The notes under the pieces: generated by a model
Seen by the model: only the letters and a program-made list of their open reading frames with translations
What the model was told of the DNA's origin: nothing
The model's database searches: none
Made by a program: the position numbers and the translations under genes
Source of the DNA: Ceratodon purpureus
Taxonomy: Eukaryota > Streptophyta > Bryopsida > Pseudoditrichales > Ditrichaceae
Assembly (NCBI GenBank): GCA_014871385.1
Contig: CM026428.1
Span: 3,815,621 to 3,879,620, forward strand
Length of the DNA stretch: 64,000 nucleotides
Direction: 5' to 3'
Shown: positions 22,001 to 61,633 of the stretch, piece after piece
How the letters are laid out: every line of letters begins with the position of its first letter
Position numbering within the stretch: position 1 is the stretch's first letter

Positions 22001-22029
22001 GACTGGGGCATATTCATAGGCAGCCTTCA

Positions 22030-22098: not shown

Positions 22099-22600
22099 CA
22101 CCGGGTTTAAAAAGCAAAAGGCCGAAGCCGAAAACACAGGGCCGAAGCCCGTCACGCCCCGGCGCGGAGCGCCGAGGCGCGGGGCCCCGGGCCTCGCGGC
22201 CCGAGGCCGGGGTGCCCGGCCAGCGGGCACAGGTCCTAAAAATATCACGAAACACCAACTACCAGCCGGCCAGGCAAGAGGGCCCAGGCCCGGACATCGG
22301 CACCGGGCCTGCAGCAAAGAAAAACCTAAAAACCTAGAAGCCTACCAAATAAGCTACCTAGAAAGGACAAAAGAGGCAGCGCAACACCTGCCGAGCAAAT
22401 CTATCCCGTTGGATGTCTTGGTCCTAACGTGAAGTAACCCTGTCCGTCCGACAGCCACCTCGAAAACGCGTCCCCGTCCAATTGCTCCGCAAAGTACGCT
22501 CTACACCGCTGCTAACTACGTGCCCACAACACCAGCTTTCGGTGCGCACACCCAATCCCTTCGCTGATGTCGAGGTAGGTAGAGGGAACATACTATAAAA
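22099..22600. other. GC-rich noncoding segment of copy B
   Basis: Includes a strongly GC-rich stretch (22140-22230) built of GCGCGG, GCCCGG and GGGCCC words, and a partial tRNA-like repeat near 22490. No gene was recognised. Confidence 0.4.
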
Positions 22601-22691
22601 CGCACAAATGGCAGCAGTCATGGCCCCGGGGAAGGAGGGGGCTCCCAAGAGGCTTTCGGTGCCGAATGCCACCCTAGTGGTCACTCTCAAT

Positions 22692-23293
22692 GTGCAGGCT
22701 GAGGGGCATTCGGTGCCGAAAGCCCCCCATGAGGAGGGTGGCAGATGTGGGGGGAGGGGGTTTGAAGGAGATGTGGGTGGTGCCGACACCATGGTTCGAA
22801 GGGCAGAGGTGCAGGCTGAGGGGCATTCGGTGCCGAAAGCCCCCCATGAGGAGGGTGGCAGATGTGGGGGGAGGGGGTTTGAAGGAGATGTGGGTGGTGC
22901 CGACACCATGGTTCGAAGGGCAGAGGTGCAGGCTGAGGGGCATTCGGTGCCGAAAGCCCTCCATGAGGAGGGTGGCAGATGTGGAGGGAGGGGGTTTGAA
23001 GGAGATGTGGGTGGTGCCGACACCATGGTTCGAAGGGCAGAGGTGCAGGCTGAGGGGCATTCGGTGCCGAAAGCCCTCCATGAGGAGGGTGGCAGATGTG
23101 GGGGGAGGGGGTTTGAAGGAGATGTGGGTGGTGCCGACACCATGGTTCGAAGGGCAGAAGTGCAGGCTGAGGGGCATTCGGTGCCGAAAGCCTCCCATGA
23201 GGAGAGGGCAGATGTGGGGGTAGGCGGTTTGTAGGACATGGTGGGTGGTGCCAACACCATGGTCCCAGAGGCAGAGGTGCAGGCTGAGGTGGT
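22692..23293. repeat. 117-bp minisatellite, about five units
   Basis: GTGCAGGCTGAGGGGCATTC recurs at 22692, 22809, 22926, 23043, 23160 and 23277, an exact 117-bp period. As 117 is divisible by three and the unit lacks stops, it is open on both strands (39-residue repeats); this alone is no evidence of coding. Confidence 0.9.
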
Positions 23294-23349
23294 GGAATTC
23301 CTTACCTTGTTCACGACAATCTTATTGATTTCTGCCCCTAGAATTTAAG

Positions 23350-25357: not shown

Positions 25358-25719
25358 GCATGTCGTGAGTCTGAAGGAGGCTTTGGTCTATCATTGTTTT
25401 CATCTGATTTGATTTGATTTGATTAGAGTTGATTACATAATCTTTCGTCTACTTTATTGCAAGCCACTTAAAGTATTTATGATTCTCATTTCCATTTTAT
25501 ATTCCTCTATGTAAAGGTCTACAACTGCAAGACTTTTTGGCTCTCAATTCTCATGTGTTTAAAGGGAATACCACTTCACTTATGAAGTTGTTTTTGTTTG
25601 CTAATTATATCTAGTACACTAGACAACACTAACGTAAACAACTGAAATGCTCAAAATATATATTGCGCTGTAATTACTTTCTTTGTCATTCAACAACATC
25701 TCACATTTCCATAGCCATG

Positions 25720-26283
25720 TTACCTATTCTTGGGAGAGATCCACATACCATCTCTTGGAGAATTTTTCTTTCCTTCCGGCACATCCAAGACCTGATTCCC
25801 ATTGGCCCAAAGCAATGACCTTAACTGATCTAACTCAACGCAACTAAGTTCTCCAAGGGTCGCTGTCTCTAACCTCTCGTTGTAAATTGGATTTGCAAGT
25901 GTCCAAGAACTTCTAAAAACATTCCAGTTGATGTTGAACCGATTAACTTCGTGCTCGTCCTTTTGACTCCAATGGCGACCACTGTACGACAAGTAATCCC
26001 ACCTCGCTAGTTGAAGGCATGCGTATTCAGGACTGCTGTCAATCTCACGCTTCTACAACTTTGACACAGCACGAGCGTTCTCAACGACTTCAAACGTGAT
26101 TACCATCGGAGGAGTCCAAGCCTGCGTTGTACTACTACCTATATGATCCCAGGGGTTTGGCCCATCCGCCATCCGCTTAAGCAATTCCTGTAAAATCGTT
26201 TTCCAAGCAACGACCTCAAATGAATCGCCCATACCTTCAAACAAAAGCCTAGCAAGTACAAGGTTAAGTACTACAGATATCAT
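25720..26283 (-). pseudogene. reverse-strand right-end gene (copy B)
   Basis: Two adjacent reverse-strand open segments (26283-26053 and 25992-25720) read like one short protein interrupted by a stop. The downstream segment ends LDVPEGKKNSPRDGMWISPK, which resembles the end of the copy A protein at 60482-60853 (VVELPE...WTVYPSKD) and has the same position and strand. No known domain is recognised. Confidence 0.4.
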
Positions 26284-26808
26284 TGAGCTAATAGAACGTC
26301 AAAGACGTCTGCTAAGGTTTATATACATCGTTGCTTAACACTTAAGCTAGCAGTGCTCTTATCTAAAGACCGGGAAATCTTCGACGAAGACAAGCAGTCT
26401 GACATGGTTTACATGTTGGTTTCAGCAACTCCATTATTGTACACGAAATTTGAAATATTCCACGAAGTTTTCAGACCTTTAATTTTACCTTTTGTGAAAT
26501 TTGTTATTCCTTAAATTATTCATATTATCCTATGCAATATTTACTGTTGTGATCTAAAAACATCATGCTGGAATACTCGTATCTAGATCCAATAAGGGAC
26601 CAAATCTAAAGGAATGTATGCATGACGTCATCATGACATCAGCCCTAATTTGTATCTTAGAGAACAAACGTAATAAATTCTTACCAGAGATAATCCTGAT
26701 TTCCACGATAATATACTCTTTTCCTAAAAAAAGTGTCAAAATCAAGCCTTAATTTAGTAATTTTCCACGGTTATGGGGTCTACTTTGCTTTTGAAAATTT
26801 TGCTAATT
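26284..26808. other. subterminal noncoding region of copy B
   Basis: Collinear and highly similar to 61140-61549. It includes the motif CCACGGTTATGGGGTC (26765-26780), one mismatch from the subterminal motif of copy A. Confidence 0.6.
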
Positions 26809-26881
26809 GTCAATTCTGTGCTCTCCATTCCGTGCTCTCCGCTCTCCGCTCTACGCTCTCCGCTCACATACGAACTTTCCC
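26809..26881 (-). repeat. right terminal repeat of MULE copy B
   Basis: Reverse complement reads GGGAAAGTTCGTATGTGAGCGGAGAGCG..., followed by two GAGAGCACAGAAT-like phrases. It is nearly identical to 61550-61622 and an inverted, diverged relative of the left terminal repeat. Confidence 0.9.
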
Positions 26882-26892
26882 CCGCAGTTCCT
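26882..26892. repeat. target site duplication, right (copy B)
   Basis: CCGCAGTTCCT, identical to 18504-18514. Confidence 0.9.
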
Positions 26893-44482: not shown

Positions 44483-44493
44483 CATTCTCTAGG
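44483..44493. repeat. target site duplication, left (copy A)
   Basis: CATTCTCTAGG immediately before the GAGGGTAGC terminus, repeated exactly at 61623-61633. Confidence 0.92.
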
Positions 44494-44577
44494 GAGGGTA
44501 GCTTGTACGTGAGCGCAGAGCGGAGAGCGGAGAGCGGTGAGCGCAGATTTGGAGAGCGGAGAGCACAGAATGGGGGA
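44494..44577 (+). repeat. left terminal repeat of MULE copy A
   Basis: The outer 22 bp are followed by GAGCGCA/GAGCGGA-type units and GAGAGCACAGAATG. The inverted, diverged counterpart is 61550-61622. Confidence 0.9.
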
Positions 44578-44684
44578 CAGAACCTAAAAATAGCACTTTT
44601 TTTACTAAAAATAAATCATAAAATTAGAAGATTCGAATATTCTTCATTTATTTTGGGAAATTTACTAATTTTAGTAATTCAATT

Positions 44685-44700
44685 GACCCTATAACCGTGG
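44685..44700 (+). promoter_or_regulatory. 16-bp subterminal motif, left
   Basis: GACCCTATAACCGTGG, 191 bp from the left end. A perfect inverted copy lies 101 bp from the right end (61506-61521), and it is kept in copies B (18706; 26765 with one mismatch) and C (12565). It is a candidate transposase-binding site. Confidence 0.55.
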
Positions 44701-45411
44701 ACTGATTACAGTATTTTCATTGAATTTGTAGTTCATATTCTCTTTTCTTGGTGATTAATTTTTTAACGTGCACCAATTACTATGCTCCAGCTCCTTCTTA
44801 CTAGTTCAGGCAGACTGTAATTCCCCTTATCTCCTTAAATTTATATGCAAATTACTACTTAAAATGTATTGGTATTGAACCTCTGAACAGGGATCAAGTA
44901 ACATTTAATTTCGTAACATTTTTTTAACATTGGTAGAATTCATCCACCATAGTCTACACGCCTTTCTCCTTTTTTTATTTTTTTTAATTTTCTTGAAATT
45001 TGTCTTGTATTTTTTATAAAATTTTCTTTATTCTATCTATCTTGTTAGAGGGGTCAAAAGCCTCCTTTCATTTAATTCTCTCCTTCATTTTATTTTCACA
45101 ATCATTTTATTTTCACATTCAATTTGTTAATCTTCTTCAAATTATTTTCAACCTTCATTTTAAATATTGCTATTCTTTTCGTTAATCTTTTTAATTTCAA
45201 TTTATATATATTTTTTTATTTTTATTTTTTTATTTTTATTTTTTTTTTATTTTTATTTTTTTTTTCAATTTCTTTAAATTAAAAAAAAAAAAATTAAATG
45301 CTAAATGACCTCTGCTAAACCTTCATCTTTTTCCATTCGGTTTAGGAGGATGACAACTTCTAAATGAATGAATAGCCGATTTTCAAGGGCGCCAAGCATC
45401 TTCTTCACGGA
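44701..45411. other. AT-rich 5' region between terminus and accessory gene
   Basis: Noncoding and collinear in all three copies, with long T-rich tracts at 45200-45290. Confidence 0.5.
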
Positions 45412-45419
45412 TATTTAAG
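45412..45419 (+). promoter_or_regulatory. TATA-like box of the 150-aa gene
   Basis: TATTTAAG, 78 bp upstream of the ATG. It is conserved in copies B and C inside the phrase GATATTTAAGATA. Confidence 0.5.
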
Positions 45420-45496
45420 ATAATGGTAGGGAATGTCTCTGCCTCTTTTGTGTTGGTGTTATGTGAAGCTCTTTTCCGTAGTGCGGGACAGCAGCT

Positions 45497-45949
45497 ATGG
45501 AAGACGTCAGAGATATTGTTGTTTCACTTGCTGACGATGTTTGTCCATTTCAACCATATGTTGAGGTGGAGGACGAAGAAGAGGTGATGGCCAACAGCCA
45601 AGGGCGTCCGTCGACATCAGATGTTGACGTACAACCGGATGTAAGAGCTGACCCTCCACGTTCAGAAAATTCGGATGAAATCATAGTGATAGAGAAGGAC
45701 GCAGATGTGCCTTTGCAACCACATGCATACTCGATGGTTGGAAAGATCCCAAGGGGAACCTATTCCAGAGAATCAGTTAATCGGAGGCGGGGAGGTGGGC
45801 CATTGCTGAAACGTTCATACCAAGGACACGCTCGAAGTGTGGGAACGAAGGTGAATGCGAATGTAGTTTGTCCTCTAGTACAGTCAGCGGCTGGCAGTCC
45901 TGCTGATAGTGTAGTGGGCAACCCTAAACGTGTTAGGTTCGAAGATTGA
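45497..45949 (+). CDS. 150-aa acidic accessory protein of the MULE-type element (copy A)
   Basis: An intact ATG-started ORF. The N-terminal half is acidic (VEVEDEEEV; a second run EKDADV near 75) and the middle is basic (ESVNRRRGGG, then KRSYQGH). It ends VGNPKRVRFED. I recognise no domain and predict no signal peptide or membrane segment. It is convergent with the transposase gene, 254 bp end to end, the same topology as mudrA/mudrB of maize MuDR, although I see no sequence evidence that it is related to MURB. Full-length frames in copies A and C argue for function, for example in integration or control of transposition. Confidence 0.65.
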   Translation: MEDVRDIVVSLADDVCPFQPYVEVEDEEEVMANSQGRPSTSDVDVQPDVRADPPRSENSDEIIVIEKDADVPLQPHAYSMVGKIPRGTYSRESVNRRRGGGPLLKRSYQGHARSVGTKVNANVVCPLVQSAAGSPADSVVGNPKRVRFED

Positions 45950-46203
45950 GACATCTAATAACAAGTATATGTTTGCTGTAATAAAAGATACATGTCAGGG
46001 GATACGAAGTATATAGTGCACTTGTTCAAGATAGATTGTATTGAAATAGAATGCAATTAATGTGAACAACAAAGCCCTTAATATAATGAAAAAGTCAATA
46101 CAGCTTCTATATTGCTGACTTAGTACATGGGATATTACTAAAATCATTCACTACGTGACAAATGGCCATTGTGGAAATGGCAGTTCTAAAGTAGGAGGGC
46201 TAC
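45950..46203. other. convergent intergenic region of copy A
   Basis: 254 bp shared by all three copies. It probably holds overlapping 3' ends of both transcripts, as an AATAAA-like signal occurs on each strand. Confidence 0.45.
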
Positions 46204-49200
46204 CTACTTCTTCGCCAAGGGGTGACGCAAGATTCCACTCTCTAGGAGAAGCTTGACCTCGTTGAAGCTAAAGGTAGGCGCATGGATGAAAAGCTCGGCT
46301 TCGGGATCACGGTTGCAGACCTTCAAGAGTATGTAGTATAGGTGCTTACAATACGTGAACAGAGTCTTGCCACGGAACGTAGTCATCGTCTTCTTGAATG
46401 CTGGGCAAGTGCAACCAGGGTAAGAACTGATGGTAATCTGGTACCGCGTGATGTGTGGAGCGACGCCCGAATCCAGCCCAATGATGCAACCGTGGCCCGG
46501 CTCAGGTATCATGGTCACGGAACGGAGGCGCGCTTTAAGAGACTCGGAGGAGCCCATGGAGAGTCGCTGCGCTTGATTGGGACGAGTGGCAGTGCGCTTC
46601 ACCATCTTGCCGTCTCTCTTCCCTGGGTAGCGGTCTGCGTCTGCAGGGACTGGCACTGAGCTGAGATTTGCAGGAGGCGGGGCAGAGGAGAAGAGGCGTC
46701 TTGGGGAGACCGGTTTCTTCTGCGGAAGTTGAAAGCCTGCTGCTTCGAGGGCAAGAATCTCAGTAAGTTTTAGGTTAGTACCTAGTTTCACTGGCCACAC
46801 CTCTGGAATGGAGGGGAATTCCTGGTCCTTTGAGTAGTGTGCTACCCACTTGCGCTTAGAGCCTTTCACGCAACGCTCGATATCGTCGGAGCAGAAGAAG
46901 AACTCAGTCTTCTCCACTAGGTTCCTGCGATAGTTAGTCCAGAGCCCAGTGTAGGTCGGTGCTGCTGTGCAATGGGGCCCCCTGACGATTCTCTCAGTGC
47001 ACTTCTTCTTCGTTTCAGCTCTTTGGGCCCAGCAGCACTTCGCAGAAAGTTTGTGAAGTCTCGAAATGTGCCACTCCTTCACGTCCACCTTGGTTTCTTC
47101 AACCGCGTTGACATGGCGAATGCCGCCCTTGTTCACAGGTGAAGGTAAAGGGGAATCAACTTCCTGGGCAGGAGGTTGGGTACATTGTACCTCGGTGTCG
47201 TGTTCGGAGTCGTCTTCCACAATGACCGGCATCTGCATAGGGCGAGCCCTGACGGCACGTCTTGGGCCTCTTGGGCGTGAGAAGTTGGTCTTATCCGGGC
47301 GATGAGACTCTTCGTCAGCTCCGATAAGGACGTCGGCTTTTCGCTTCTGTGAACCAAAGACTTCCGCTCCTGGCATGATAGGGTGACGGGTGCAGAACTC
47401 ATCCGCGCCTGGCATATCGAGCATGGGCTTGTCGAGCAGTGTAGGATTTCCCCATTTCTTCGCGTTGCGTTCAGCCATCCGGAGCCTGAGTTCCTTCTTG
47501 GATGGTCCTGTTCCGCCGACGTCACCTTTGAGGAACTGGTAGTAGTTGACAACCTGTAGAAATGCCCGAACGAAATCGTCCACGGTAGCAACGTAGAGGT
47601 CGTTCCCGTTGTTTCCTGAAGCTTGGAGCCACTTGTTGTGGACTGTTTCGGCGAGGTTACAGGTGGGCATCTCTGTGAGTTCTTCTTTCGTGAATTTCTG
47701 CAGATTTGACAGTAGATGCCGTTAGAATCACCGATTACAGTTTTGTAGGTTAGGGCTAGGAAACCAGTATCAAAAACATGAAAACAGAGTGCAGAGATAA
47801 TACGTCGGTCATGAATCCCCCCCACTGGCGGAAGCGGTGGTGCCAGAATGACAGCCACTGATCGAGTTTGATGAGCCCGCTCTCGCCAACGACCCCGGTG
47901 GATGCCCACCATGCTCGCAACGCGTGGTACAGAGTTTCCGCCTCTGCCATGCTGGTCGCATTCTTGTACTGAGTGCACATCTTCTTGTGCTGTTCCCAGA
48001 GTTCTTCGGGGAAGTGCTTCTGCGTATACGCCACCATGTTCTGAGTCCAGTGGAACAAGCACGACCTCTCCCGGTCCTCCATTGGGTCCTCTTTGTTGCC
48101 ATTGCCGTAAAGGATTCGCACTGCATTCCAATTCGCCTGTGCGTTATCCGCCATGAACCCCTTGAAGTTCGGCGCTGCAACGCCATTGATCTCCATGACC
48201 AGGTTCAGGTTTTTCCAGAAGACGAGCTGGGCCTCCGTGTCCTCGGACTGCATGTCGCAAGTGGCGATTGTCATCACGCGGCAGTAGGTGGCGTCGTACA
48301 CATGGCACGCCATTGTCGACCAATCTTTGACGCGTTTGACATGGTCGAACATGATCCATGCGTTCTCCAAATCGCCACCAGCTTGCATACGGCTGACCAA
48401 GTCGACACCGCTGCCCGGCCCGACCTCCGACATCTTGAAGACAAAGACTTTGTCACGCATGGATCCCTGACCAGGAAACCTATTCTCCTGGACATACGCC
48501 CAGAGACTGTTACCACGGAGCTTGGTGATACCGTCCATGATTCCGTACCTTACGAATTTTTTGAAGGTGGCGACTTTGTTGCGGATGTTGGGCGACGCCA
48601 TGTCTTTGCAACGATCCAAAACAGGAACCAGTTCCTCCATCGTCAGCTTCCTCGGTGGTGCATCCTCGGGCTGTAGAAGGTAGCTCCCGATGAGGAGTTT
48701 GCTCGCCTCGAGGACAACGGCGCTCTTCGTTGCTTTGTTGTTCATCTCTACCTGCTCCTCTATTAAGCTACTAATCTCTGCTTTAGAGTCTCTGTAGTCT
48801 CCTACTTTCACTGGATGATCATGTGTTCCGATGTGAATACAAGCTCTAGTCTGATTCGGTTTGCCCACAACGTAATAAATCTTAGCCTCGCATGTAGCTA
48901 CACATGATGGAGGTTCTTTACATACCTTGCACAATAGCGTGGAGTCAGATGGAGGAGGCTGGTCCATGACAAAAGCTTGCAGGGTACAGCCTTCGAACTC
49001 AGTCTCGTTGACCTCGAAGATCTTGGGAACACGCTTGAGGAAGTCACACTCCTGGTTGCTGCACCGAAGCCATCCGACGCAGGTGGAACTTCGAAAAGAG
49101 AGTCCGAAGTCGTTTTTGATGTTTGTTGTGATGGTCTTGGTCCACAAGTGTCCGTCGTATCGTTTGTCCATTCCCTGCATAGACTTGGCGGCGAGCTTAG

Positions 49201-49882
49201 AGGATCCTGCAGCAGCTGGGGGCAACTCAAAAAGAACCGGACCATCAAACTTCGCAGGCAAGTACTCTACTCTCTCGTGTCTAATAGTGGAATAGTCTAT
49301 TTTCTTCAAAATGTTTTTGGACCCACGCGTCTTAGCAATCTCTTTAAGGAGCGGAACAATGCTAACTGTGACCTGGGACAATGGAGGAGACACATTGGAA
49401 GGAGGAGCATCTGCGTGGACCTTAGGCACCAACTTGACGGGACTGACTTCGTCATCAGAAGAGAGTGATATGACGGTCGGAGGAGGTTTCTCTACATCTG
49501 AAGTCTCGGTACCCGGCTCGACTTTGACTTTGACATCACGAGGTAAGGGAGTCTGAATTGTGCAAGTAGAAGAGCGACGGGGGGTGAGGATCTCAGTGGA
49601 TGCAGCCATAAGAGAATCAGTAAGACCGTAGACTCTATAGGATCCAGGGAGGAGTCTCCACTGCAACATGTTGTTCTCATCTCTCACTGAAGGTTGCCCG
49701 AGGGTGTGGGTAACCTCGGCAGTAACGTCATCGAACATCTCCTCCTCTATACTGATGGAATCCTCACGGAAATGGAATCTGAGACTGAGGCGAAGAGAGG
49801 ACACCGTAGCTAGACCATCGTCATCTACGCGAAACCTAAGGGGGATGCCCATGCCTTGGGCGTACAGACAGACCATCCCCAT
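46204..49882 (-). CDS. MULE (Mutator-like) transposase with SWIM zinc finger
   Basis: Two exons on the minus strand, 49882-47804 and 47697-46204, joined in phase 0 (GAC/GTATTA donor, CTGCAG acceptor), about 1190 aa. The ATG at 49882 is the first; upstream codons are open but non-ATG. Order of parts: an N-terminal region with acidic Ser/Asp patches; a zinc-binding DNA-binding domain of the WRKY-GCM/FLYWCH type (CKVC near 317 through HIGTHDHP near 350); the MULE DDE catalytic region (about 480-640, with CHVYDATYC, SEDTEAQLVFW and FMADNAQANW); and a C-terminal SWIM finger (C1122, C1124, C1143, H1145). It should act in the nucleus, binding the terminal repeats and cutting and joining DNA with about 9-11-bp target duplications, which match those seen. 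It is divergent from the ParB-methyltransferase gene. No break is seen. Confidence 0.9.
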
Positions 49883-50609
49883 ATTCGCAGGGAAATCAGA
49901 GGCACTACAGGAAGAAGGGAGAAGAGGGAGTGTACCAGCCAAGCGCTATCTTGAGAGCAAAGTGAAAGGAATGATGCATCGTTGATGATCATTTTATTCA
50001 AGGTGGAATGTCCATGTCAACAGTTGGGGAATGATTCTGTCTGTTACGTAACGAATGTGTGCAACAAGAGAGACGGCGCTAACTGATTAGAATGTGCTTT
50101 TTGCAGGCCCATAAATATGTGGTAAGATTTTCAGAATATTGCTTCAAGTGTTTAAATGGTGGAGCAGATTCTATTTTTTAAGGAGTGTGATTGGATTAAA
50201 AAGAGCCGTATTTTCCTTCTGCATTGAAAACAATAAATATATAGAATTTGAATTAATCATATTCATGCATTACTTATATATGTATACGACTAATGCAAGC
50301 ATATGATTTATTCAAATTCTATATTTTATGCAGTGTTAGGGTTCCTCAATTTTCATAATACATTTCTGGACAGACAGACTGTGAGTGAGATTAGAGTGAG
50401 CCGTCACTTGAATCCATATTTAATACAAGTATTCCTGTGCTTAATTAAAATCTTTTAATATTTTGTGGGCTTGGTTTATTCTCTTCAAAAATAGATTGAT
50501 CTCATCAGCTTTAATTCAAAATACAATTTATTTATTGTTTTCATTAAATCAAGTAGGTTTAGAGTAAGGTAAGTATCTAGGGCTGAGTCAGGGGGGTTGA
50601 AGGTTTGGG
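49883..50609. promoter_or_regulatory. divergent promoter region of copy A
   Basis: A 727-bp AT-rich region between the transposase and the ParB-methyltransferase gene, both transcribed outward from here. It contains the palindrome described at 50238-50325. No clear TATA box was assigned. Confidence 0.45.
50238..50325. repeat. long imperfect palindrome in the divergent promoter
   Basis: Two arms of about 35 bp (50238-50272 and 50291-50325; AATTTGAATTAATCATAT against AATTTGAATAAATCATAT) are separated by 18 bp and differ at about five positions. It could be a small MITE or a regulatory hairpin or operator shared by the two divergent genes. Confidence 0.6.
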
Positions 50610-53600
50610 ATGTATAAGTTAGAGGGAAGTAAGGAGGAGAGCTATATTGTGAGGAGAGTTCATTTGTTAGTTAGACACATGAGGGACAGTGGAGGGTCAG
50701 CTCCCTCCACTTATGTCACTCCTAGACCTAGAAGAAAACCAGGTCGTACAGATTTTACGAATAGGAGAGCGAGGAAGAGGAGAGAGTCACGCAAGAAGGT
50801 AGTTTTGAAAGGTGACCATTTGAGTGCACCACTGAAAAGGAGAGGAGCAGGTCTGCCATTAGCCTTGAAATTTACTAGCATTCGCAAAGTCATTCTAGAC
50901 TCTATAGAGGAGGACAAGGAAGAGTATTTAGAGAACACCGTAGGCGGTAATCACGAGAAGGAGGTAGATTTAAGTGGAGAAACAGTTGAGGCCATGACGG
51001 AAGAATTAGTTTTTAATTGTAGTCAAAGAGTTGAGTCACCGCAGCCTTCTATTAGCTATAATGAAATTTCGACAGGGGAGTTGGGATCTCAAACAAATGT
51101 ATATGTTAACTCCGGAACGGTAAGCATTTTCACACCGTTTTGACTGCTGTGCATTGTTTAAATGAATTCAACATTCTAAAGAGTAGACGCATTTCTATTG
51201 ACAATGAATCAATCTAAAGTACCGTAGCATCAGCTTAAACTCACATACGGTAGCACTCACGACTGAAAATGTTTAAAATAAATGTGTAGAGTTACCAAAG
51301 GATAAGGGTAGAGGGAGATCGGAATTTTGACTCACCTTCTGAAGAGGGTCGTGAACTCGACCATTTGGCTGCCATTGCGAGGAGAGCGAGAATCGAGATA
51401 TTGGGAGCAGGAGAAGGAGGGTTTGCAATGGCTGCGAGGGAAGAGCAGGTGAGGGCGGGGCTTCTGAGAGCAGGTGAGGAGCAGGCGGGGGTCGGTGCAG
51501 AGGCCGCGGAGGAGGCTGCTGTCGAGATGGCGGTGGAGGAGCTGGGAGGAGCGGAGGAGCAGCTCGCGCCGCCTGGGGTTCCTGAGGAGCAGGAGAGAAC
51601 TGATGAGGACGACGAGGAGGGAGAACGGGAAAGTGGAGATGAGGTACGATTTTCCGGTGTCATGCGGTTTGATTGCTTGGTGTACGGATCTTGTCGTACG
51701 GGTTGATGGCGATGTGGCAAATTATGATTATGAGATGATTATTCTAAGTGCTGGGTGTTCAGAATTAGGGGGATTGGAACCTCTTTGCGGATTTACATGA
51801 TATTAGGTTTCGGGTTTTGGGTTTTTGGTTTACATCGAATGCGAGTCAAGGTTGCTTCTTGGGATTTGGGTTTTTGAGATGGGGATTGGATTGGGTGCGG
51901 GATGGGGATCAGATGCGTAGTGGGTTAGGGAGAGGGACAGGGAGAGGCCGCGGGGAGATGAACAGGGAGAGAGTTAGGGAGACGGACAGGGAGAGGCCGC
52001 GGGAGATGGACAGGGAGAGAGTTAGGGAGAGGGACAGGGAGAGGCCGCGGGAGATGGACATGGAGAGGGTTAGGGAGAGGGTTAGGGAGAGGGACAGGGA
52101 GAGGCCGCGGAGAGATGGACAGGGAGAGAGTTAGGAAGAGGGACAGGAAGAGGCCGCGGGAGATGGACAGGTAGAGAGTTAGGGAGAGGGAAAGGAGAGG
52201 CCGCGGGAGATGGACATGGAGAGGGTTAGGGAGAGGGACAGGGAGAGGCCGCGGGGAGATGGACAGGGAGAGTGTTAGGAAGAGGGACAGGGAGAGGCCG
52301 CGGGAGATGGACAGGGAGAGTATTAGGGAGAGGGACAGGGAGAGGCCGCGGGAGATGGACATGGAGAGGGTTAGGGAGAGGGTCAGGGAGAGGCCGCGGG
52401 GAGATGGACAGGGGAGAGAGTAAGGGAGAGGGACAGGGAGAGAGTTAGGGAGAGAACAGTAGGTGGTCGCGAGGGAGATGGGCTCTTCCTCATTATCATG
52501 TTTTTTTTTTTCTTTAAATTTAAAATTAAATGCCGACCCAGCCTACTCTCTGTAACGACAGTAGGCGGGACAGATATTTATTTTCATTATGTTACCGAGG
52601 CTCCCTCCTTTGAGGGGGAGCATTGCTTCACATTTTTGTTTAATGTTGTTGTGAGCGTTGCTAAGGTTTGCGGCTCTTCCTCATTATCATGTTTTTTTTT
52701 TTCTTTAAATTTTAAATTAAATACCGACCCAGCCTACTGTCGTTACAGACAGTAGGCGGGACAAATTTTTATTTTCATTATGTTACCGAGGCTCCCTCCT
52801 TTGAGGGGGAGCATTGCTTCACATTTTTGTTGAATGTTGTTGTGAGCATTGCTAAGGTTCGCGGCTCTTCCTCATTATCATGTTTTTTTTTTTCTTTTAA
52901 TTTTAAATTAAATACCGACCCAGCCTACTGTCGTTACAGACAGTAGGCGGGACAAATATTTATTTTCATTATGTTACCGAGGCTCCCTCCTTTGAGGGGG
53001 AGCATTGCTTCACATTTTTGTTTAATGTTGTTGTGAGCATTGCTAAGGTTCGCGGCTCTTCCTCATTATCATGTTTTTTTTTTTCTTTAAATTTTAAATT
53101 AAATACCGACCCAGCCTACTGTCGTTACAGACAGTAGGCGGGACAAATATTTATTTTCATTATGTTACCGAGGCTCCCTCCTTTGAGGGGGAGCATTGCT
53201 TCACATTTTTGTTGAATGTTGTTGTGAGCATTGCTAAGGTTCGCGGCTCTTCCTCATTATCATGTTTTTTTTTTTCTTTTAATTTTAAATTAAATACCGA
53301 CCCAGCCTACTGTCGTTACAGACAGTAGGCGGGACAAATATTTATTTTCATTATGTTACCGAGGCTCCCTCCTTTGAGGGGGAGCATTGCTTCACATTTT
53401 TGTTGAATGTTGTTGTGAGCATTGCTAAGGTTCGCGGCTCTTCCTCATTATCATGTTTTTTTTTTTCTTTTAATTTTAAATTAAATACCGACCCAGCCTA
53501 CTGTCGTTACAGACAGTAGGCGGGACAAATTTTTATTTTCATTATGTTACCGAGGCTCCCTCCTTTGAGGGGGAGCATTGCTTCACATTTTTGTTTAATG

Positions 53601-56600
53601 TTGTTGTGAGCATTGCTAAGGTTTAGGGCTCTTCCACATTATCATGTTTTTTTTTTTCTTTAAATTTTAAATTAAATGCCGACCCAGCCTACTGTCTGTA
53701 ACGACAGTAGGCGGGACAGATATTTATTTTCATTATGTTACCGAGGCTCCCTCCTTTGAGGGGGAGCATTGCTTCACATTTTTGTTTAATGTTGTTGTGA
53801 GCGTTGCTAAGGTTTGCGGCTCTTCCTCATTATCATGTTTTTTTTTTTCTTTTAATTTTAAATTAAATACCGACCCAGCCTACTGTCGTTACAGACAGTA
53901 GGCAGGACAAATATTTATTTTCATTATGTTACCGAGGCTCCCTCCTTTGAGGGGGAGCATTGCTTCACATTTTTGTTGAATGTTGTTGTGAGCATTGCTA
54001 AGGTTCGCGGCTCTTCCTCATTATCATGTTTTTTTTTTTCTTTAAATTTTAAATTAAATACCGACCCAGCCTACTGTCGTTACAGACAGTAGGCGGGACA
54101 AATTTTTATTTTCATTATGTTACCAAGGCTCCCTCCTTTGAGGGGGAGCATTGCTTCACATTTTTGTTTAATGTTGTTGTGAGCATTGCTAAGGTTTAGG
54201 GCTCTTCCTCATTATCATGTTTTTTTTTTTCTTTAAATTTTAAATTAAATACCGACCCAGCCTACTGTCGTTACAGACAGTAGGCGGGACAAATATTTAT
54301 TTTAATTATGTTACCGAGGCTCCCTCCTTTGAGGGGGAGCATTGCTTCACATTTTTGTTGAATGTTGTTGTGAGCATTGCTAAGGTTCGCGGCTCTTCCT
54401 CATTATCATGTTTTTTTTTTTCTTTTAATTTTAAATTAAATACCGACCCAGCCTACTGTCGTTACAGACAGTAGGCGGGACAAATATTTATTTTCATTAT
54501 GTTACCGAGGCTCCCTCCTTTGAGGGGGAGCATTGCTTCACATTTTTGTTTAATGTTGTTGTGAGCATTGCTAAGGTTTAGGGCTCTTCCACATTATCAT
54601 GTTTTTTTTTTTCTTTAAATTTAAAATTAAATGCCGACCCAGCCTACTGTCTGTAACGACAGTAGGCGGGACAGATATTTATTTTCATTATGTTACCGAG
54701 GCTCCCTCCTTTGAGGGGGAGCATTGCTTCACATTTTTGTTTAATGTTGTTGTGAGCGTTGCTAAGGTTTGCGGCTCTTCCTCATTATCATGTTTTTTTT
54801 TCTTTAAATTTAAAATTAAATGCCGACCCAGCCTACTGTCTGTAACGACAGTAGGCGGGACAGATATTTATTTTCATTATGTTACCGAGGCTCCCTCCTT
54901 TGAGGGGGAGCATTGCTTCACATTTTTGTTTAATGTTGTTGTTAGCGTTGCTAAGGTTTGCGGCTCTTCCTCATTATCATGTTTTTTTTTTTTGAAATAT
55001 TTTATATTAAATGCCGTCCCTGTCTACTGTTTTAGAGGGGAAGCATTGGTTGGAAGCGCTTCTCGGCTGTTGACTAGGTCGAATTCTCGGCTGTTGTAGT
55101 TTGGGGTACCATGAGAGTAAATGCGTGATGGTTATTTACTTGTTTAATTTTACATCTTAATATTCTTTTAACTTAACAGGTACAAGAATGTTCTTCCATG
55201 TTTGATGTAACATCATAAACGTGCCTTGTGACTTAGGAATCCTCTGAGGACAACATGGAGAGCCAAGGTCTATATCCGACTCCAGCAGAAACCGAGGTAC
55301 TTTTTTACTCTCTACAGAAAATCTAGGATTCTTTTGATCTTAATAGTGTGTCCTCGACCTCTAGGTTGTTGTTTCTCTCATTTTTAGATCTGCAAATTAA
55401 CCTTAAACTTTTTAATGTACTCTAGGTATATTCAGATGCTTCTGAGATGTCCGCTACATCCCCCATTTCAGTCATCAATGTTTCCGATCTCTCGGATTCA
55501 TTTGATCAGCCTTATTGTACCTGTGATGTAGCCAACCCTGTAGTTGGAGGTAGTGGACCTTTCGAGGTCCACTCTCCCCAATACATGCCCACTTCTCCCG
55601 TGTACATGCCTACCTCCCCAGTGTATGAGCCTACCTCCCCGGGGTACATGCCCACCTCCCCTCCACAGGGATCACCGCCGATGTCTCCACCCTCGCCTTC
55701 CTCGCCTATTAGAGTAAGGAGGCCAGCACATGTGGTCTTCGCGCTTCCGGCAATTCTGCCGTGCCCGGTTCAGCAAACCAGGCGGTTTTGGAGGAGGCGC
55801 CGTCACTGGAACTGTAGACAGTCCAAGGAGTACTATAGTCAAGCATCACGTAGATAGTTCCTTCCATCGCAGATGACGATTGACTTGTTACAAAAGAAAT
55901 GACAGTATGAAGATATATTGTTACTTTCTTTTACATACTTGTCTTCTTTGCATGACTTCCTTTGATTGTGATTCCTCTCTTAATTCGAACACCTCTTCGC
56001 AGGTTACGCTAACACAAGATGTGTTGGCAAAACCATCTTGCCCGATCGACTTGAAGACTGCTATGGAAGGGGAATTGCAGCATCGAATAACATACAAGTT
56101 GGACTCCAACGCCGTCATCAACAACTGCAGGATCAAACCGTCGCACACGTCTCGAATGCTGGTGCCCTTATGCAGGATGATTCCAATGCCCAAGGTTAGA
56201 CCAGTGGGTGAAATGGGGGTACAACACTTGGAGCGGGAGTTTGTTAAGGGATATAGAGATGGGGACCGCGTCATGTACATCTCCATGTACAATACCGAAG
56301 AGGAGACGAAGAATGTGACGGCGGAGATCATGGCCACTTGGAGCCCTTTATGGAGGGCCGCAAGTGATCGCTTTGATGATGAGGTCTCTGGGGACGAGGA
56401 GTTGATGCAGTTCTCGCACAAGATGTTTTATGTCTGGGAGGGTAATCATCGCCTCTCCGCTTGGCTCCGGCACATCAACAAGCATCATGCGGACGACCCA
56501 TCCTGGCACATCTCTGTGCATTGCATTGTACTTGACCCTCGTGGCCATGTGGGTATTCTCCTGCACGCTATGCACGACATCAACTGGTACGTTCAAAACC

Positions 56601-59600
56601 TTGAGTATTTGATATCCACTTGGAGTCATTTTCTATAATATTTCTTCCACTTACTTACTAATTTGATATTCAGGTCGACCGAGAATGACCACGTGAAGAG
56701 TAATCTCCCAGCAAAATTGTTTCGAATCCGCTCATTCGGAACGATGAAGCTGGAGGAGTTCAAGGACCTCCTGAACCCTCAAGAATACGATGCTTGTTTG
56801 AAAAACAAGCCCCCGAACCCGTCATGGTTTCCCCTGACTACTCGAGTTTTCATCGCCTTTCTCTACCGAGTAAGTTTGACCTCCTCTCCGTCTTCGCTCG
56901 TTCTATCTTCTCTCATACTTTTAAAGTTTAATGTCGTTCTTTTCTGAATTCTCTAAAAATTGGTTATTCTTCTACAGCGGGAAATTGCTGTGGCCTCGGA
57001 TGAAGCAGCTAATGCCTACATGGAGAAGACACCGGCGAATGAACAGACTGCGTCTGCGGTTTGGGAAATCATGAATGACGCGTCTGAGAAAATGGTGGAA
57101 TCCATAAAGAATAAGGACTTTACCAAGTACTTGGCAATTGCAAATCCCAAAAACGGAGACGACTTCCTGAATGAGGTAACAACTTCATTCAATATCATTT
57201 AAGAATTTGGAATTGTTTCAAAGTTCAGAATATTATTTTCTAATACTTCTCTGCTCCTGGCAGATCAATCGGCATTACAGTCTAAACTCCAAACCTGAAA
57301 TGTCCCTTGATAAGCTCCAGAAGATATGTCCGGCGGCCGTTGAGCCCAAATACAAGGTTCGGTGGCTGCGGTGGTGGAACTCATCTCTGAGTTCCAGACT
57401 ATCTTACAGATTTCCACCGCCAGGATTCAAGGATACTGATTTTGACCCTTGGTTGAACAGGGCTTCATTCTGGGCAGGGGTATGGTTTCGAAAAATGCCT
57501 TACCAATGACAACATGCTTTCTGAATTCTTTTCTCATTGGTACTTATTTCAATTCTGTATTTCAGTTGGAGGAGGCCGTCGTCAACGAGGTCGAGGACAT
57601 ATTCAAGTCGGAGAACCTCGATATCGACTGGAGGGCATTTCCTGATGTCCAACAGCCGGGCGATTACGTCGAGAGTTCACATATTATGTTCTGGGACAAG
57701 GCCTTCCCTTCGTTCATTGGAAAGAGAGCAAAGAAGCCCTTTGAGAAGAAGTCCGACTTCGCTAAATTCCCTGGAACCGCTGATGTTGTCAAGCGGGTTA
57801 TTTACCGGTATATTGCGTTACTTTTTCGCATTTGTGTATTCTAATTCGCTAGAGCTTTCTATGCTACTAACCTTCTAAATCTCTTCTCTTAGGTACTTCA
57901 TGCGAGAGCTTGTTTTGAAGGGGGTCATCACAGTCCAGCAGCTACCCAACTACTTCCGTTCTTGGACGGAGACAACCTCGGACCAGTGTATCTATTCTCC
58001 CCAGCAGCTGCAAAGGTACAAAGCTCCTCACTTGCTTGAGGGATGCTGGTACCTTGATTGCTCTCGTGGTTTCACGATTGATTCAGAGGTCGAAGTCAAG
58101 ACTCTACACGATGGGGGTGCGGTGGTGGTCGAGGACACAGAGGATGGTGCAGACGATTTTGGAGGCCCTGAAGATCAATCCTCTGCTCCTCCACCAAAGA
58201 GAGGGAGAGGAAGGCGACTGAAATCTCTGGGTTCTCAGTCAGAGGCATCACAGCAAACTGGTGCGGAGTCTTCCGCGCCAGCTGACAAGGCACCAGATCC
58301 GTCTCCGTGTGTTGTCGTTACCAACCCTTCTCCAGCTTCTTCGCCGGCTCCTTCATCGATCAGTGCTTCGGAGATCACCAGAGGTCTCCTTCAGCAGAGG
58401 AAGGCCAAACTATATCCTCAAACAACTTCTTCCGTTGGAGCTTCGATTTCCACACACGTTTCCGTCTTCAACTCATCTGTGGATTCCCTGTTGCGGCGAA
58501 ATAGGAGACAGGAGAGAAAAGGTGGCGACCCGGATTGGATCAAGATTCAAGACTTCATTCGCAAGGTATGTTCTTATATTTTGACATTTCATGGATTCAG
58601 CCACCTCTACTCGCTTTGTAGTTACTAACTCTCCTTTCTTGTTTCCTCCAGTTTGGGGCAGGCCGCGAAAACGAAGTTCCGGACCGGTGCAAACAAGAGG
58701 ACCATCTGGGAGTCGACTTGATCATTGCCGACATCCCTGAGAATCTTCCCGTCCCTTCCGTTTCCGTTCCCCCCACGAGTATTCCGCCTTGGAACTCTCG
58801 CTACAAGGATTATTTGTACGACATCTTCCATTTTGCAGATGAATTCATGCAGAAAGATGGTGCCATCTGCCTCATCTACAACACTGATCAGAAGCTGGCT
58901 AAGGATATCGAGGAAGAAGCTGCTGCTGGTGGATACGTGCTCTTCAAGGACTGGTGGGGTGTCAATGTCCTCGGCCTCACTTCTCCCACGAACCCCGAGA
59001 ACTTGGTAATTTTCCTGAACATGCCCTTCTCTTCGCTTACTGATAACCCTTCCGCTTCATTTTACTCACTAGTTTTGCTTGACTGCAGACTATGCGATTC
59101 TGGATTCGCGTCTACGTTCGTAGTGGCTGTACCTTCTCCTTCCAGACGAAGAAGGAAGACCTGATACATGGGCTCCTCAACATTACCGAGAGTGATGCCA
59201 TTTTCAACTTGACCGATGTGGATTCGCAGCTCATGAATGGGGAGGTGCCGTGGAGAGGCCCAAGAGAGAAATCCATCGAGATGATGCAGGGCATACTTGA
59301 GGAGCTGTCGAAGCCCGGCGACATAGTTGTTGATTGGAATGCTGGGACAGGTAACTATTCATGCATATCTTTGCTGAATTATTCTTCTCGTTTTTACCAC
59401 AGTTTCTCATTTCTTTGTGTCTCTCCGAGTTTCAGGAGCCTCCATCAAGGCTGCCCAGGCTATTGGTCGCCACATTCTCGCCTTTGAGGAGGACGAAGCC
59501 ATATTCAACGCCCTTCTCAAACCATCCGCCATGGGTCCTCCTAAACATCCAAGGCCGGCAACAGCAGGCGAAGCGCCTCCAAAGAGACCAAGACCTGACA

Positions 59601-59968
59601 AGTGGTGTAAGTCTTCTATTCTTTGTTTATATTATTCAATCATTACTTCTCTTTGTAGCTCTACGTACTCGATGTAACCACAGTCCGTTCTCTATTGCAG
59701 AGTAGTTTCAACAACACCGCCACGTGGGCCAACATCACTGTCCACTCCATCGTGGCGTCTTCATTCCAGCCCGATTCAGCCTTTTATACTTCCGGACTAC
59801 GCAGAGGACTTAGCACAGGCGTTTCAATCTGGAGCCCTTACGTATGTTCCTAGTCGGCCAACTACTTTTGATCCCAGGGCCCTCCTATTTGTCGATGACG
59901 AGGCGGTAGAAGGAGATTCAGAGTCATCTAGTTCTGAGAGTGAAAGTAGCGATTTTAGCATGTTGTGA
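50610..59968 (+). CDS. ParB-like / DNA N4/N6-methyltransferase fusion protein carried by the transposon
   Basis: Fourteen predicted exons: 50610-51119, 51290-51643, 55237-55296, 55426-55713, 56003-56586, 56674-56869, 56978-57175, 57264-57479, 57566-57807, 57893-58565, 58652-59005, 59089-59350, 59436-59606, 59706-59968. Phases match throughout, giving about 1456 aa. Exons 1-2: basic, then Glu/Ala-rich. Exon 4: four YxPTSPx heptads like the RNA polymerase II CTD. Exon 5: a ParB/sulfiredoxin-like domain (VRPVGEMGVQ, near 468, to VWEGNHRLSAW, near 549). Exons 11-13: a beta-class methyltransferase fold, with motif IV position DIPE (1134-1137, normally DPPY) before the SAM-binding motif I DWNAGTG (1307-1313) and AAQAIGRHILAFEED. 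A basic KRGRGRR linker suggests nuclear location. Membership of exons 1-2, across a 3.6-kb repeat-filled intron, is less certain, as is the last acceptor (the nearer AG gives a stop). Role inferred: binding or modifying element or host DNA. Confidence 0.7.
51926..52470. repeat. 48-bp minisatellite, about ten units, G-rich
   Basis: GGCCGCGG recurs every 47-49 bp (51946, 51995, 52043, 52103, 52152, 52199, 52247, 52296, 52344, 52392), within GTTAGGGAGAGGGACAGGG-type sequence. It lies in predicted intron 2 of the ParB-methyltransferase gene. Regular GGG runs give G-quadruplex potential. Confidence 0.85.
52481..55035. repeat. 190-191-bp tandem array, 13 units plus a partial one
   Basis: GGCTCTTCC marks unit starts at 52481, 52672, 52863, 53054, 53245, 53436, 53627, 53818, 54009, 54200, 54391, 54582, 54773 and 54962, with spacing 189-191 bp. 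Units are almost identical, so amplification is recent. Each contains a perfect 9-bp hairpin (CCTACTGTC / GACAGTAGG) and a second palindromic stretch (GCTCCCTCC..GGGGGAGC). The array fills most of predicted intron 2. ORFs across it (for example 54599-55099) are by-products. Confidence 0.95.
55582..55665 (+). other. RNA polymerase II CTD-like heptads (four) within exon 4
   Basis: Encodes YMPTSPV, YMPTSPV, YEPTSPG, YMPTSPP in direct succession, followed by a Ser/Pro-rich tail. The CTD consensus is YSPTSPS, so Tyr1, Pro3, Thr4, Ser5 and Pro6 are kept while Ser2 is Met or Glu and Ser7 is variable. Confidence 0.8.
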
Positions 59969-60481
59969 GTTTGAAGGAGGCTTCGGTCTATTGTTGTTTT
60001 CATTGGATTTGATTTGATTTAATTGGAGTTCATTGGGTAATCCTTCGTCTACTCTACTACCCTAAACCTAAACTTGTTATAATTCTCATATCAAATTTGT
60101 CTCCGTGTTTGTAAAGGATGAAATGTCACAACTGTAATGCTCAAAATATAATATGAAGAATGAAATGTTACAAAAGAAAGGCTCAAATATAATATTGTGC
60201 TGTTATTTATATTTTACTCATTCAAAATCCCACATTTGCATAGCCACGTTACCTATTCTTGACTTGGTGTACATCTTGGTTTCTGCTACTCCATTATTGT
60301 ACACGAACTCTGAAATATTCCACGAACTTCTAAGACCATTTCTTTTAGTTGGTTTTTCTTTTCTTATTTCTAGAATCGTCTATATTATATAAAACCATCA
60401 TGCTAGAATTCTCGCATCTAGATCCAATGAATGACCAAATCTTAAAGATTGTATTCGAACACCCCACTAGACTTCACAGTA
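59969..60481. other. 3' region between the methyltransferase gene and the right-end gene
   Basis: AT-rich. Contains a segment (about 60255-60365, CCATTATTGTACACGAA...) that is echoed at 61140-61240 and at 26395-26500 in copy B, so a local duplication flanks the small reverse gene. Confidence 0.45.
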
Positions 60482-60853
60482 CTAATCCTTCGAAGGATAT
60501 ACAGTCCAACTCTTGTCCATATCAAACCAGCAAGTTTCGCCATCCGATATGATCACTTCGGGCAGCTCAACAACTAGATTCTCATTGATGTTCGATAGCA
60601 AGGGATACGGGATTAGGGACAACTCCATAATACGGAGAAGCTCATTGGTACAAAGCACTGTCCAACGCCATTCACCTTCACCAACATGGAGGCTTCCGAT
60701 GTGCCTAAACGGTGGCAGGTCCATGCCTCGTTCCCTGGCGCGCTCCACCTCCAGCAGCCACGGCCGCAGCTCCTCATAACTCGCCGGTGCCTTTGGGGGC
60801 AAACCTACAGCCGCTCTCGTCCTCCTGGATCTCGCATTACACACCTTCGGCAT
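60482..60853 (-). CDS. small reverse-strand protein near the right end of copy A
   Basis: A 123-aa ORF from an ATG at 60853, facing the ParB-methyltransferase gene (convergent). It has an Arg-rich start (MPKVCNARSRRTRAAVG), a charged helix-like stretch (SYEELRPWLLEVERARERG) and a Trp-rich end (W..W near 65, GETCWFDMDKSWTVYP). I recognise no domain. A possible homologue holds the same place and strand in copy B (25720-26283), although strongly diverged, which supports a fourth gene of the element. It may have an upstream exon. Moderately uncertain. Confidence 0.45.
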   Translation of the reverse strand: MPKVCNARSRRTRAAVGLPPKAPASYEELRPWLLEVERARERGMDLPPFRHIGSLHVGEGEWRWTVLCTNELLRIMELSLIPYPLLSNINENLVVELPEVIISDGETCWFDMDKSWTVYPSKD

Positions 60854-61549
60854 CGCGCAACACACTGAATTCTTGTAGTCTTAAAAGGTTCCACATAAGC
60901 CTACAGATTGACCCCCCTGAACTCCATCGCTACCTTCGCATACAACAGAGAATGCCAAGGACTGTGTCACTATCCTAATACGCCACCTAGAAACAATCTC
61001 AAGAAACCAAGAGTGACCTCCTTCTCTGGAACCCAGCTTACCAAGTGTTGTTTCATGATGAAAATCTCCTACTTGTATCACTCAAATGAAGATGCTTTGC
61101 TGCCTAGGAAGAGAGAGTAATCTTCGATGAAGACAAGGACTCTAACAAGGTATATCTTGGTTTGAGCAGTTCAGATATTATACACGAATTTTGAAATATT
61201 CCAGGAAGTTTTCAAACCTTGCCTCCTTTATGTTCTGTGAAAGTTGTTTCTTTCCTTGTGCATTTTCATTAACCTATGAAAGAATTAATTGTTTGATCTA
61301 GAACTTAACGCCTGATCATTATATCTTGCCTAAATCCATGAGAAATCTAACAAAATATATGCATGACGTCATCATGACATCAGCCCTAATTTGTATCTTA
61401 GAGAACAAACGTAATAAATTCTTACCAGAGATAATCATGAGTTCCACGGTAATATACTCTTTTTCTAAAAAAAGTGTCAAAATTAAGCCTTAATTTAGTA
61501 ATTTTCCACGGTTATAGGGTCTCCTTTGCTTTTGAAAATTTTGTTAATT
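60854..61549. other. right subterminal region of copy A
   Basis: Noncoding. From about 61350 it is nearly identical to 26610-26808 of copy B, and it includes the inverted 16-bp motif at 61506-61521. Confidence 0.5.
61506..61521 (-). promoter_or_regulatory. 16-bp subterminal motif, right
   Basis: CCACGGTTATAGGGTC, the exact reverse complement of the motif at 44685-44700. Confidence 0.55.
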
Positions 61550-61622
61550 GTCAATTCTGTGCTCTCCATTCTGTGCTCTCCGCTCTCCGCTCTACGCTCT
61601 CCGCTCACATACGAACTTTCCC
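61550..61622 (-). repeat. right terminal repeat of MULE copy A
   Basis: Inverted relative to 44494-44577. It has GCTCTCCGCTCTCC-type units and ends GCTCACATACGAACTTTCCC. Nearly identical to the right end of copy B. Confidence 0.9.
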
Positions 61623-61633
61623 CATTCTCTAGG
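61623..61633. repeat. target site duplication, right (copy A)
   Basis: CATTCTCTAGG, identical to 44483-44493. Confidence 0.92.

What the first reader, a model, noticed from the sequence alone, without database searches (positions are those of the whole stretch)
50610..59968. A ParB-like plus DNA methyltransferase fusion gene carried inside a plant DNA transposon
The spliced model joins a ParB/sulfiredoxin-like domain (VWEGNHRLSAW signature) to a beta-class N4/N6-methyltransferase fold (motif IV position, then GDIVVDWNAGTG, then AAQAIGRHILAFEED). Such fusions are known from bacteria, phages and integrative elements. Here the gene has about 13 introns and lies between the verified ends of a MULE-type element. 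DNA-modification genes in eukaryotic transposons have precedent (TET/JBP genes in fungal KDZ elements), but I know of no described plant MULE with this cargo. It may protect or mark element DNA, or counter host silencing.
Basis: partly seen in the sequence, partly recalled or inferred. Interest (0 to 1): 0.92.

Follow-up and report, generated by a model that had tools for sequence, protein, structure and literature searches.

The report
Plant jumping gene carrying bacterial-type DNA methyltransferase
A large, intact-looking plant DNA transposon carries, besides its transposase, a selected gene whose end is derived from a bacterial-type DNA methyltransferase, so the element may mark or unmask its own DNA, although the enzyme's catalytic motif is altered and the proposed ParB part is unproven.

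Summary
The observation mostly holds. 44494-61623 is a complete 17.1-kb element with inverted ends and a perfect 10-bp target-site duplication. It has an open two-exon transposase frame and, divergently, a gene modelled as 12 exons (55255-59968, 1163 aa). A second, decayed copy (18515-26882, own duplication) carries part of the same gene, so the gene belongs to the element. In the five exon segments compared between copies, dN/dS is 0.09-0.45 in the true frame and 0.80-2.87 in the others; the other seven exons could not be tested. The C-terminal domain descends from a bacterial beta-class DNA methyltransferase: PF01555 E 1.4e-6, above cut-off; profile comparison E 1.8e-7, score 54 against at most 23 in 100 shuffles. 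ParB rests on a motif (VWEGNHRLSAW); no search established it. Catalytic motif IV reads DIPE; 27 of 27 bacterial relatives with a recognised motif end in Y or F, so activity is doubtful. Best reading: a Mutator-like element whose second protein, built on a methyltransferase fold, acts on the element's own DNA, perhaps against silencing. Whether it methylates is open.

The parts
44494..61623 (.). Element II, complete Mutator-like element, 17,130 bp
   Evidence: Terminal patterns with 0 matches in 100 shuffles; about 53-bp inverted repeat and 10-bp flanking duplication
44484..44493 (.). Left target-site duplication ATTCTCTAGG
61624..61633 (.). Right target-site duplication ATTCTCTAGG
44494..44571 (+). 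Left terminal inverted repeat
61554..61623 (-). Right terminal inverted repeat
47804..49882 (-). Transposase exon 1 (693 aa): Cys/His cluster and DDE-like core, both read by eye
   Evidence: Open frame; Foldseek lists ISCth4 transposase in 4 of the 50 rows shown, best rank 2, E 0.20, not significant
46204..47697 (-). Transposase exon 2 with SWIM-like CxC...CxH motif; the intron was chosen from many candidates
   Evidence: Pfam SWIM E 0.15, below cut-off; dN/dS 0.24 against copy I and 0.22 against fragment III
51924..55030 (.).
55255..59968 (+). Methyltransferase-like gene, model of 12 exons, 1163 aa
   Evidence: GT...AG introns and one open frame; frame-specific purifying selection in five exon segments
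55426..55713 (+). Exon with four heptads resembling the RNA polymerase II tail (YMPTSPV)
56003..56586 (+). Exon with the putative ParB-like segment; signature VWEGNHRLSAW at 56432-56464
   Evidence: Motif only; profile scores within or just above shuffled controls
58652..59005 (+). Exon with methyltransferase motif IV, altered to DIPE at 58730-58741; absent from copy I
   Evidence: Aligns with DPPY/DIPY of phage enzymes
59089..59350 (+). Exon reaching into motif I (GDIVVDWNAGTG)
   Evidence: PF01555 E 1.4e-6, 28.9 bits against cut-off 26.7
59436..59606 (+). Exon completing the motif I region (AAQAIGRHILAFEED)
50610..51643 (+).
   Evidence: Open frames only
18515..26882 (.). Element I, decayed 8,368-bp copy with duplication CGCAGTTCCT
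23515..25368 (+). Remnant of the same gene in element I; lacks the motif IV exon, has in-frame stops and a frameshift
10570..12771 (-). Fragment III: left end and transposase 3' part only

Best explanation
This is an autonomous-looking Mutator-like DNA transposon of a streptophyte. Its second gene, transcribed divergently from the transposase, encodes a large protein ending in a domain derived from a bacterial or phage beta-class DNA methyltransferase. Shown: the element's borders, the two genes, the methyltransferase ancestry, and past selection on the C-terminal half of the protein inside the element lineage. Inferred: the protein binds the element's own DNA, probably at the tandem arrays or terminal regions, and counteracts host silencing in a self-specific way, as VANC proteins do in VANDAL MULEs. 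The methyltransferase fold supplies AdoMet and DNA contact, with weak, altered or no catalysis because motif IV is DIPE.
For: Borders and duplications in 2 of 2 complete copies. tblastn finds the gene only in elements II and I of this window. dN/dS 0.085, 0.335, 0.429, 0.387, 0.452 in the true frame against 0.80-2.87 in the ten other frame readings; codon-position differences 99/77/166, p 6e-9. Methyltransferase ancestry. Different tandem arrays lie between the two genes in each copy, as reported for VANC targets (PMC10398659). Transposase also constrained.
Against: No expression, binding or methylation data. Nothing related was found outside the window (no eukaryotic collection was on hand), so conservation rests on two copies, one of them broken. 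Seven of 12 exons are untested by selection. No similarity to VANC was shown. The array-binding idea rests on position alone; the two copies' arrays share one 11-mer, and arrays of this kind may simply be neutral. The transposase has no above-threshold Pfam MULE or SWIM match.
Confidence: 0.42

Rival explanations
1. Active modification enzyme: the protein methylates adenine N6 or cytosine N4 in the element's own DNA, protecting it or marking it as active.
For: Motif order IV then I over the whole domain; purifying selection. The first change in motif IV is natural: 4 of 27 bacterial relatives read DIPY, and so does the phage frame of L001.
Against: The fourth residue is E; 0 of 27 relatives with a recognised motif have a non-aromatic there (17 of 44 candidate frames gave no motif IV and were not counted). 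The usual HPxQKP stretch also reads GPREKS.
Confidence: 0.22
2. Transposition cofactor: the protein works with the transposase at the ends (nicking, end recognition or methylation sensing), like second genes of some other MULEs.
For: Several MULEs carry further reading frames, mudrB being the first known (PMC6446971, passages). The bacterial ParB-methyltransferase BCE_0392 was reported to have m6A activity in E. coli and nicking-associated activity (PMC3459991 and PMC5512222, passages; an earlier assay cited there found no methyl transfer).
Against: The ParB-like part is unproven; nothing links the protein to the ends.
Confidence: 0.2
3. Passenger: a host or foreign gene captured by the element, with no role in its life cycle.
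For: MULEs tend to acquire host gene fragments (PMC6446971, start of abstract in listing). Copy I has lost the motif IV exon.
Against: Selection between copies in the true frame; element II keeps a transposase frame of its own, unlike Pack-MULEs (recalled definition); the gene model is complete.
Confidence: 0.12
4. Misreading: not methyltransferase-derived, or not part of the element.
For: ParB part unsupported; transposase lacks above-threshold Pfam matches.
Confidence: 0.04

Closest known systems
VANDAL MULEs with VANC anti-silencing proteins (Arabidopsis; PMC10398659, abstract and introduction read)
   Same: Element with an accessory protein gene; tandem repeats that differ between related elements in non-coding DNA
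   Different: No sequence similarity shown; the passages read do not describe VANC as methyltransferase-derived
Cytosine methyltransferase-carrying retrotransposons of dinoflagellates and the charophyte Klebsormidium (PMC5890265, passages read)
   Same: Mobile elements that encode a DNA methyltransferase, one host a charophyte
   Different: C5 cytosine enzymes of Dnmt type in retrotransposons; here a bacterial beta-class fold in a DNA transposon
DNA transposons encoding a DNMT in marine viruses (one sentence in PMC5890265; the cited paper not seen)
   Same: A DNA transposon with a DNA methyltransferase gene, so the general idea has a precedent
   Different: C5 cytosine type as named there; viral context; details not seen
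Phage and bacterial ParB-methyltransferase fusions (BCE_0392; loci L116-L119, L121, L123, L124, L129)
   Same: PF01555-like domain; possible ParB-like segment before it
   Different: Seven of those eight phage frames are 405-469 aa long (L119 is cut by the locus end); here roughly 500 aa lie between the two parts, the ParB segment is unproven and motif IV differs
TET/JBP genes in fungal KDZ elements (recalled)
   Same: DNA-modification gene as transposon cargo
   Different: Oxygenase, not methyltransferase; different transposase group
Bdelloid rotifer N4CMT (PMC8885841, search listing and start of abstract)
   Same: Bacterial-type amino methyltransferase in a eukaryote
   Different: Not transposon-borne as I recall

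Membership tests
Mutator-like elements (MULE) | Target-site duplication of 8-11 bp | tested here: met
   10-bp perfect duplication in 2 of 2 complete copies; range from PMC6446971
Mutator-like elements (MULE) | Terminal inverted repeats | tested here: met
   About 53 bp in both complete copies
Mutator-like elements (MULE) | MULE-type DDE transposase | tested here: inconclusive
   No Pfam MULE match at E 1 or on the core at E 10 (one residue mistyped); model mean pLDDT 49.4; ISCth4 (IS256 family, recalled) at rank 2, E 0.20, not significant
Mutator-like elements (MULE) | SWIM zinc finger (frequent, not universal) | tested here: inconclusive
   CxC-x18-CxH present; Pfam SWIM E 0.15, 12.1 bits against cut-off 19.6
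Beta-class DNA N4/N6 methyltransferase (PF01555) | Above curated profile cut-off | tested here: met
   28.9 bits against 26.7, E 1.4e-6, residues 879-934 of the 965-aa query only; three NCBIfam matches stay far below their cut-offs
Beta-class DNA N4/N6 methyltransferase (PF01555) | Motif order IV before I over the whole domain | tested here: met
   198 aligned columns, E 1.8e-7, score 54.4 against a maximum of 22.9 in 100 shuffles
Beta-class DNA N4/N6 methyltransferase (PF01555) | Catalytic motif IV (D/N/S)PP(Y/F/W) (recalled) | tested here: not met
   DIPE; filed as methyltransferase-derived, not as a working enzyme
ParB/sulfiredoxin superfamily | Profile or fold similarity | tested here: inconclusive
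   No ParB hit in Pfam, PHROGs, PDB or plasmids; two phage hits at E 7 and 9; six profile tests with 7, 1, 1, 37, 5 and 0 of 60 shuffles at or above the score; model pLDDT 39.6
VANC anti-silencing proteins | Homology to VANC; sequence-specific loss of methylation | not testable with these tools
   No plant protein collection and no experiment
Pack-MULE | Carries captured fragments and lacks its own transposase (recalled) | tested here: not met
   Element II has an open 1190-aa transposase frame over two exons

The most novel reading that the evidence does not exclude
A plant DNA transposon that writes or reads its own base modification with a bacterial-type amino methyltransferase, aimed at fast-changing tandem repeats inside the element, as a self-specific escape from host silencing.
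Probability: 0.2. Interest if true: 0.93.

Novelty: new variant of a known kind. Interest (0 to 1): 0.68.

Why it matters
Transposons and hosts fight over DNA methylation. A DNA transposon that has kept a gene derived from a bacterial-type methyltransferase under selection would be a new weapon in that contest. It would make testable whether a plant-lineage mobile element can place N6-methyladenine, whose presence in plants has been questioned (PMC12695648, passage), or N4-methylcytosine. Even if the domain is catalytically dead, it would be a methyltransferase fold reused as a self-recognition protein.

Tried and rejected
A phage profile put the alignment on the right motif but scored 14.8, below the five best of 100 shuffles (16.2-21.8). 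With an 18-residue head and a 39-residue inner stretch left out, or with the core alone, 1 and 1 (phage profile) and 5 and 0 (joint profile) of 60 shuffles reached the score; the whole segment gave 7 and 37 of 60. The trims were chosen after seeing the sequence, so I count them as a hint only. Positive controls: 14 of 14 phage ParB segments, each left out in turn, scored 141-262.

Relatives: no match in viral contigs for the cargo protein or the transposase, each scanned with six exact peptide patterns, so only close relatives could have been found. Structure: both single-sequence models were poor, and Foldseek gave 0 matches at E 0.001 for either. An IS256 profile for the transposase was dropped, because the 12 genomes searched held only short or broken matches; the two control searches were then not used.

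A conserved 155-aa frame (45482-45949) was considered as a third gene and not upheld: dN/dS 0.84 between II and III. KDZ class considered: no KDZ model among the Pfam matches of the transposase at E 1. A short stretch alignable with copy I at 71% (57364-57486) was left out of the dN/dS count.

Novelty rests on paper searches and 95 of an open-licence library; subscription papers and Repbase were not searched. On checking my calls I found that names DNA transposons with a DNMT in marine viruses; I added this and lowered interest from 0.70 to 0.68.
Full report
Setting. No whole genome is held for the window. The host is streptophyte-like: a frame at 34563-36350 carries a POX domain above its Pfam cut-off (E 1.1e-6) and one at 37927-39036 a sub-threshold homeobox KN match (E 9e-4), the layout of BELL-type TALE genes (the BELL label is recalled). 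The species is unknown.

The element. A self-comparison of the window found two large regions sharing the same ends. Element II runs from 44494 to 61623 (17,130 bp), element I from 18515 to 26882 (8,368 bp). The left-end pattern occurs three times and the right-end pattern twice, and neither matched in any of 100 shuffles. Both complete copies are flanked by perfect 10-bp direct repeats, ATTCTCTAGG and CGCAGTTCCT; 56 of 2,000,000 random pairs of 10-mers in the window are identical. The inverted repeats align over about 53 bp. A third piece, 10570-12771, has only the left end and the transposase 3' part. Duplications of 8-11 bp are typical of MULEs (PMC6446971, passages read).

The transposase. 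On the minus strand two exons give an open frame of 1190 aa; the intron was picked from many candidates. By eye it has an N-terminal Cys/His cluster, a DDE-like core and CxC-x18-CxH near the C-terminus. Pfam gave only a sub-threshold SWIM match (E 0.15) and no MULE match. The core model was poor (pLDDT 49.4); Foldseek's second row was the ISCth4 transposase at E 0.20, and 4 of the 50 rows shown are ISCth4, but none is significant. The superfamily therefore rests on ends, duplication length and motif. Between copies dN/dS is 0.24 over 285 codons (II and I, two codons with stops set aside) and 0.22 over 168 codons (II and III).

The cargo gene. Ten exons from 56003 to 59968 join in frame. Two more exons, chosen by eye, join in phase and provide ATG 55255, giving 12 exons, 11 introns with GT...AG ends and 1163 aa. 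In element I the gene survives as a remnant: in-frame stops, a frameshift and loss of the whole 58652-59005 exon. This lets selection be measured in five exon segments. There dN/dS in the true frame is 0.085, 0.335, 0.429, 0.387 and 0.452, and 0.80 to 2.87 in the other two frames (the first segment has saturated synonymous sites, codons with stops were set aside, and one short alignable stretch at 57364-57486 was not included). Differences by codon position are 99, 77 and 166 (p 6e-9). Since copy I is now broken, constraint before its decay was probably stronger (inference). Seven of the 12 exons, including the ParB-like one and the motif IV exon, have no such test.

The methyltransferase domain. 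Pfam PF01555 matches at 28.9 bits (cut-off 26.7; E 1.4e-6) over the motif I region only. PHROGs gives five methyltransferase families, best E 2.6e-10. NCBIfam lists three DNA methyltransferase models at E 6.7e-4 to 0.086, all far below their cut-offs. In the PDB, 7 of 7 sequences listed at E 5 or better are DNA methyltransferases, best E 0.0044. tblastn against phages found 222 records at E 1 or better; among the 20 rows shown the best E is 6e-6, and one place covers residues 726-926 at E 9e-5. A profile of phage enzymes aligned over 198 columns at E 1.8e-7, score 54.4, against at most 22.9 in 100 shuffles. The order is motif IV then motif I, as in the beta class (recalled). Motif IV reads DIPE. 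Among 44 bacterial frames with motif I, motif IV was recognised in 27: DPPY 14, DPPF 5, DIPY 4, DVPY 3, SPPY 1, none with a non-aromatic last residue (17 without a recognised motif are not counted, and one of the two search patterns asked for Y or E there). The proline change is thus ordinary, the glutamate is not. The HPxQKP stretch of the relatives reads GPREKS here. Catalysis is doubtful.

The ParB-like part. No support from Pfam, PHROGs, PDB, plasmids or phages (two hits at E 7 and 9). Profile comparison places VWEGNHRLSAW on the ParB GGHQR motif, but the whole segment scores below the five best of 100 shuffles. Shortened versions do better, with 0 to 5 of 60 shuffles at or above; those trims were mine and came after seeing the sequence. 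The single-sequence model has pLDDT 39.6, and the 50 of 370 Foldseek rows that I saw show no ParB. I leave it open.

Mechanism. The layout (transposase and second gene divergent, long tandem arrays between them or in the first introns) resembles VANDAL MULEs, whose VANC proteins bind non-coding element regions rich in tandem repeats and cause loss of silent marks in a self-specific way (PMC10398659, abstract and introduction). In the two copies here the arrays differ: 48-bp and 191-bp units in II, 90-bp and 117-bp units in I, with one shared 11-mer. Turnover of this kind is reported for VANC targets, though neutral arrays would look the same. I therefore favour a self-specific anti-silencing or marking protein. 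Shown: borders, genes, ancestry, past selection. Inferred: DNA binding, targets, effect on silencing.

What is known. A survey of MULE diversity lists further motifs and ORFs such as SET, ovarian tumour gene, FAR1 and PMD; the word methyltransferase has 0 occurrences in its main text (PMC6446971, passages). DNA methyltransferases in mobile elements are known from dinoflagellate and charophyte retrotransposons, as C5 cytosine enzymes, and that paper also mentions DNA transposons encoding a DNMT in marine viruses (PMC5890265, passages). Bacterial ParB-methyltransferases are known, with m6A and nicking-associated activities reported for BCE_0392 (PMC3459991 and PMC5512222, passages). My paper searches listed no MULE with such a gene; the library holds only openly licensed papers and I read listings and passages, not every paper.

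Verdict. A real, uncommon element: a Mutator-like transposon with a once-selected, methyltransferase-derived second gene. The bold reading, a transposon that writes its own bacterial-type base mark, is not excluded but is weakened by motif IV.

Noticed in passing
52481-55030: 191-bp tandem array of 13.4 units; 13 palindromes of the form AGCCTACTGTC(GTTACA)GACAGTAGGC were found, the centre reading GTTACA in 9 and the reverse complement TGTAAC in 4 (one of these with a further change), as if palindromes had flipped.
   Followed up: partly
55569-55661: Four heptads resembling the RNA polymerase II C-terminal repeat (YMPTSPV, YMPTSPV, YEPTSPG, YMPTSP) in an exon of the cargo gene.
   Followed up: no
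23515-25517 against 57655-60117: Copy I is a patchwork: 67% identity over 57655-58572 but 80% over 59065-60117, and one intron at 48% (36 of 75), suggesting exchange between element lineages.
   Followed up: partly
45482-45949 and 11331-11798: A 155-aa frame kept in II and III, but with dN/dS 0.84, so probably not a gene.
   Followed up: yes
4017-7472: Long frame with DUF659 (E 2.6e-34) and hAT dimerisation domain (E 2.4e-5), both above cut-off: a hAT-type transposase gene.
   Followed up: no
8260-9933 and 12841-14220: Two frames that look kinase-like; the first matches Pkinase at E 1.6e-7, just below the cut-off; the second was judged by eye only.
   Followed up: no
34563-39036: POX plus homeobox KN frames, a BELL-type TALE gene lying between the two elements.
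   Followed up: no
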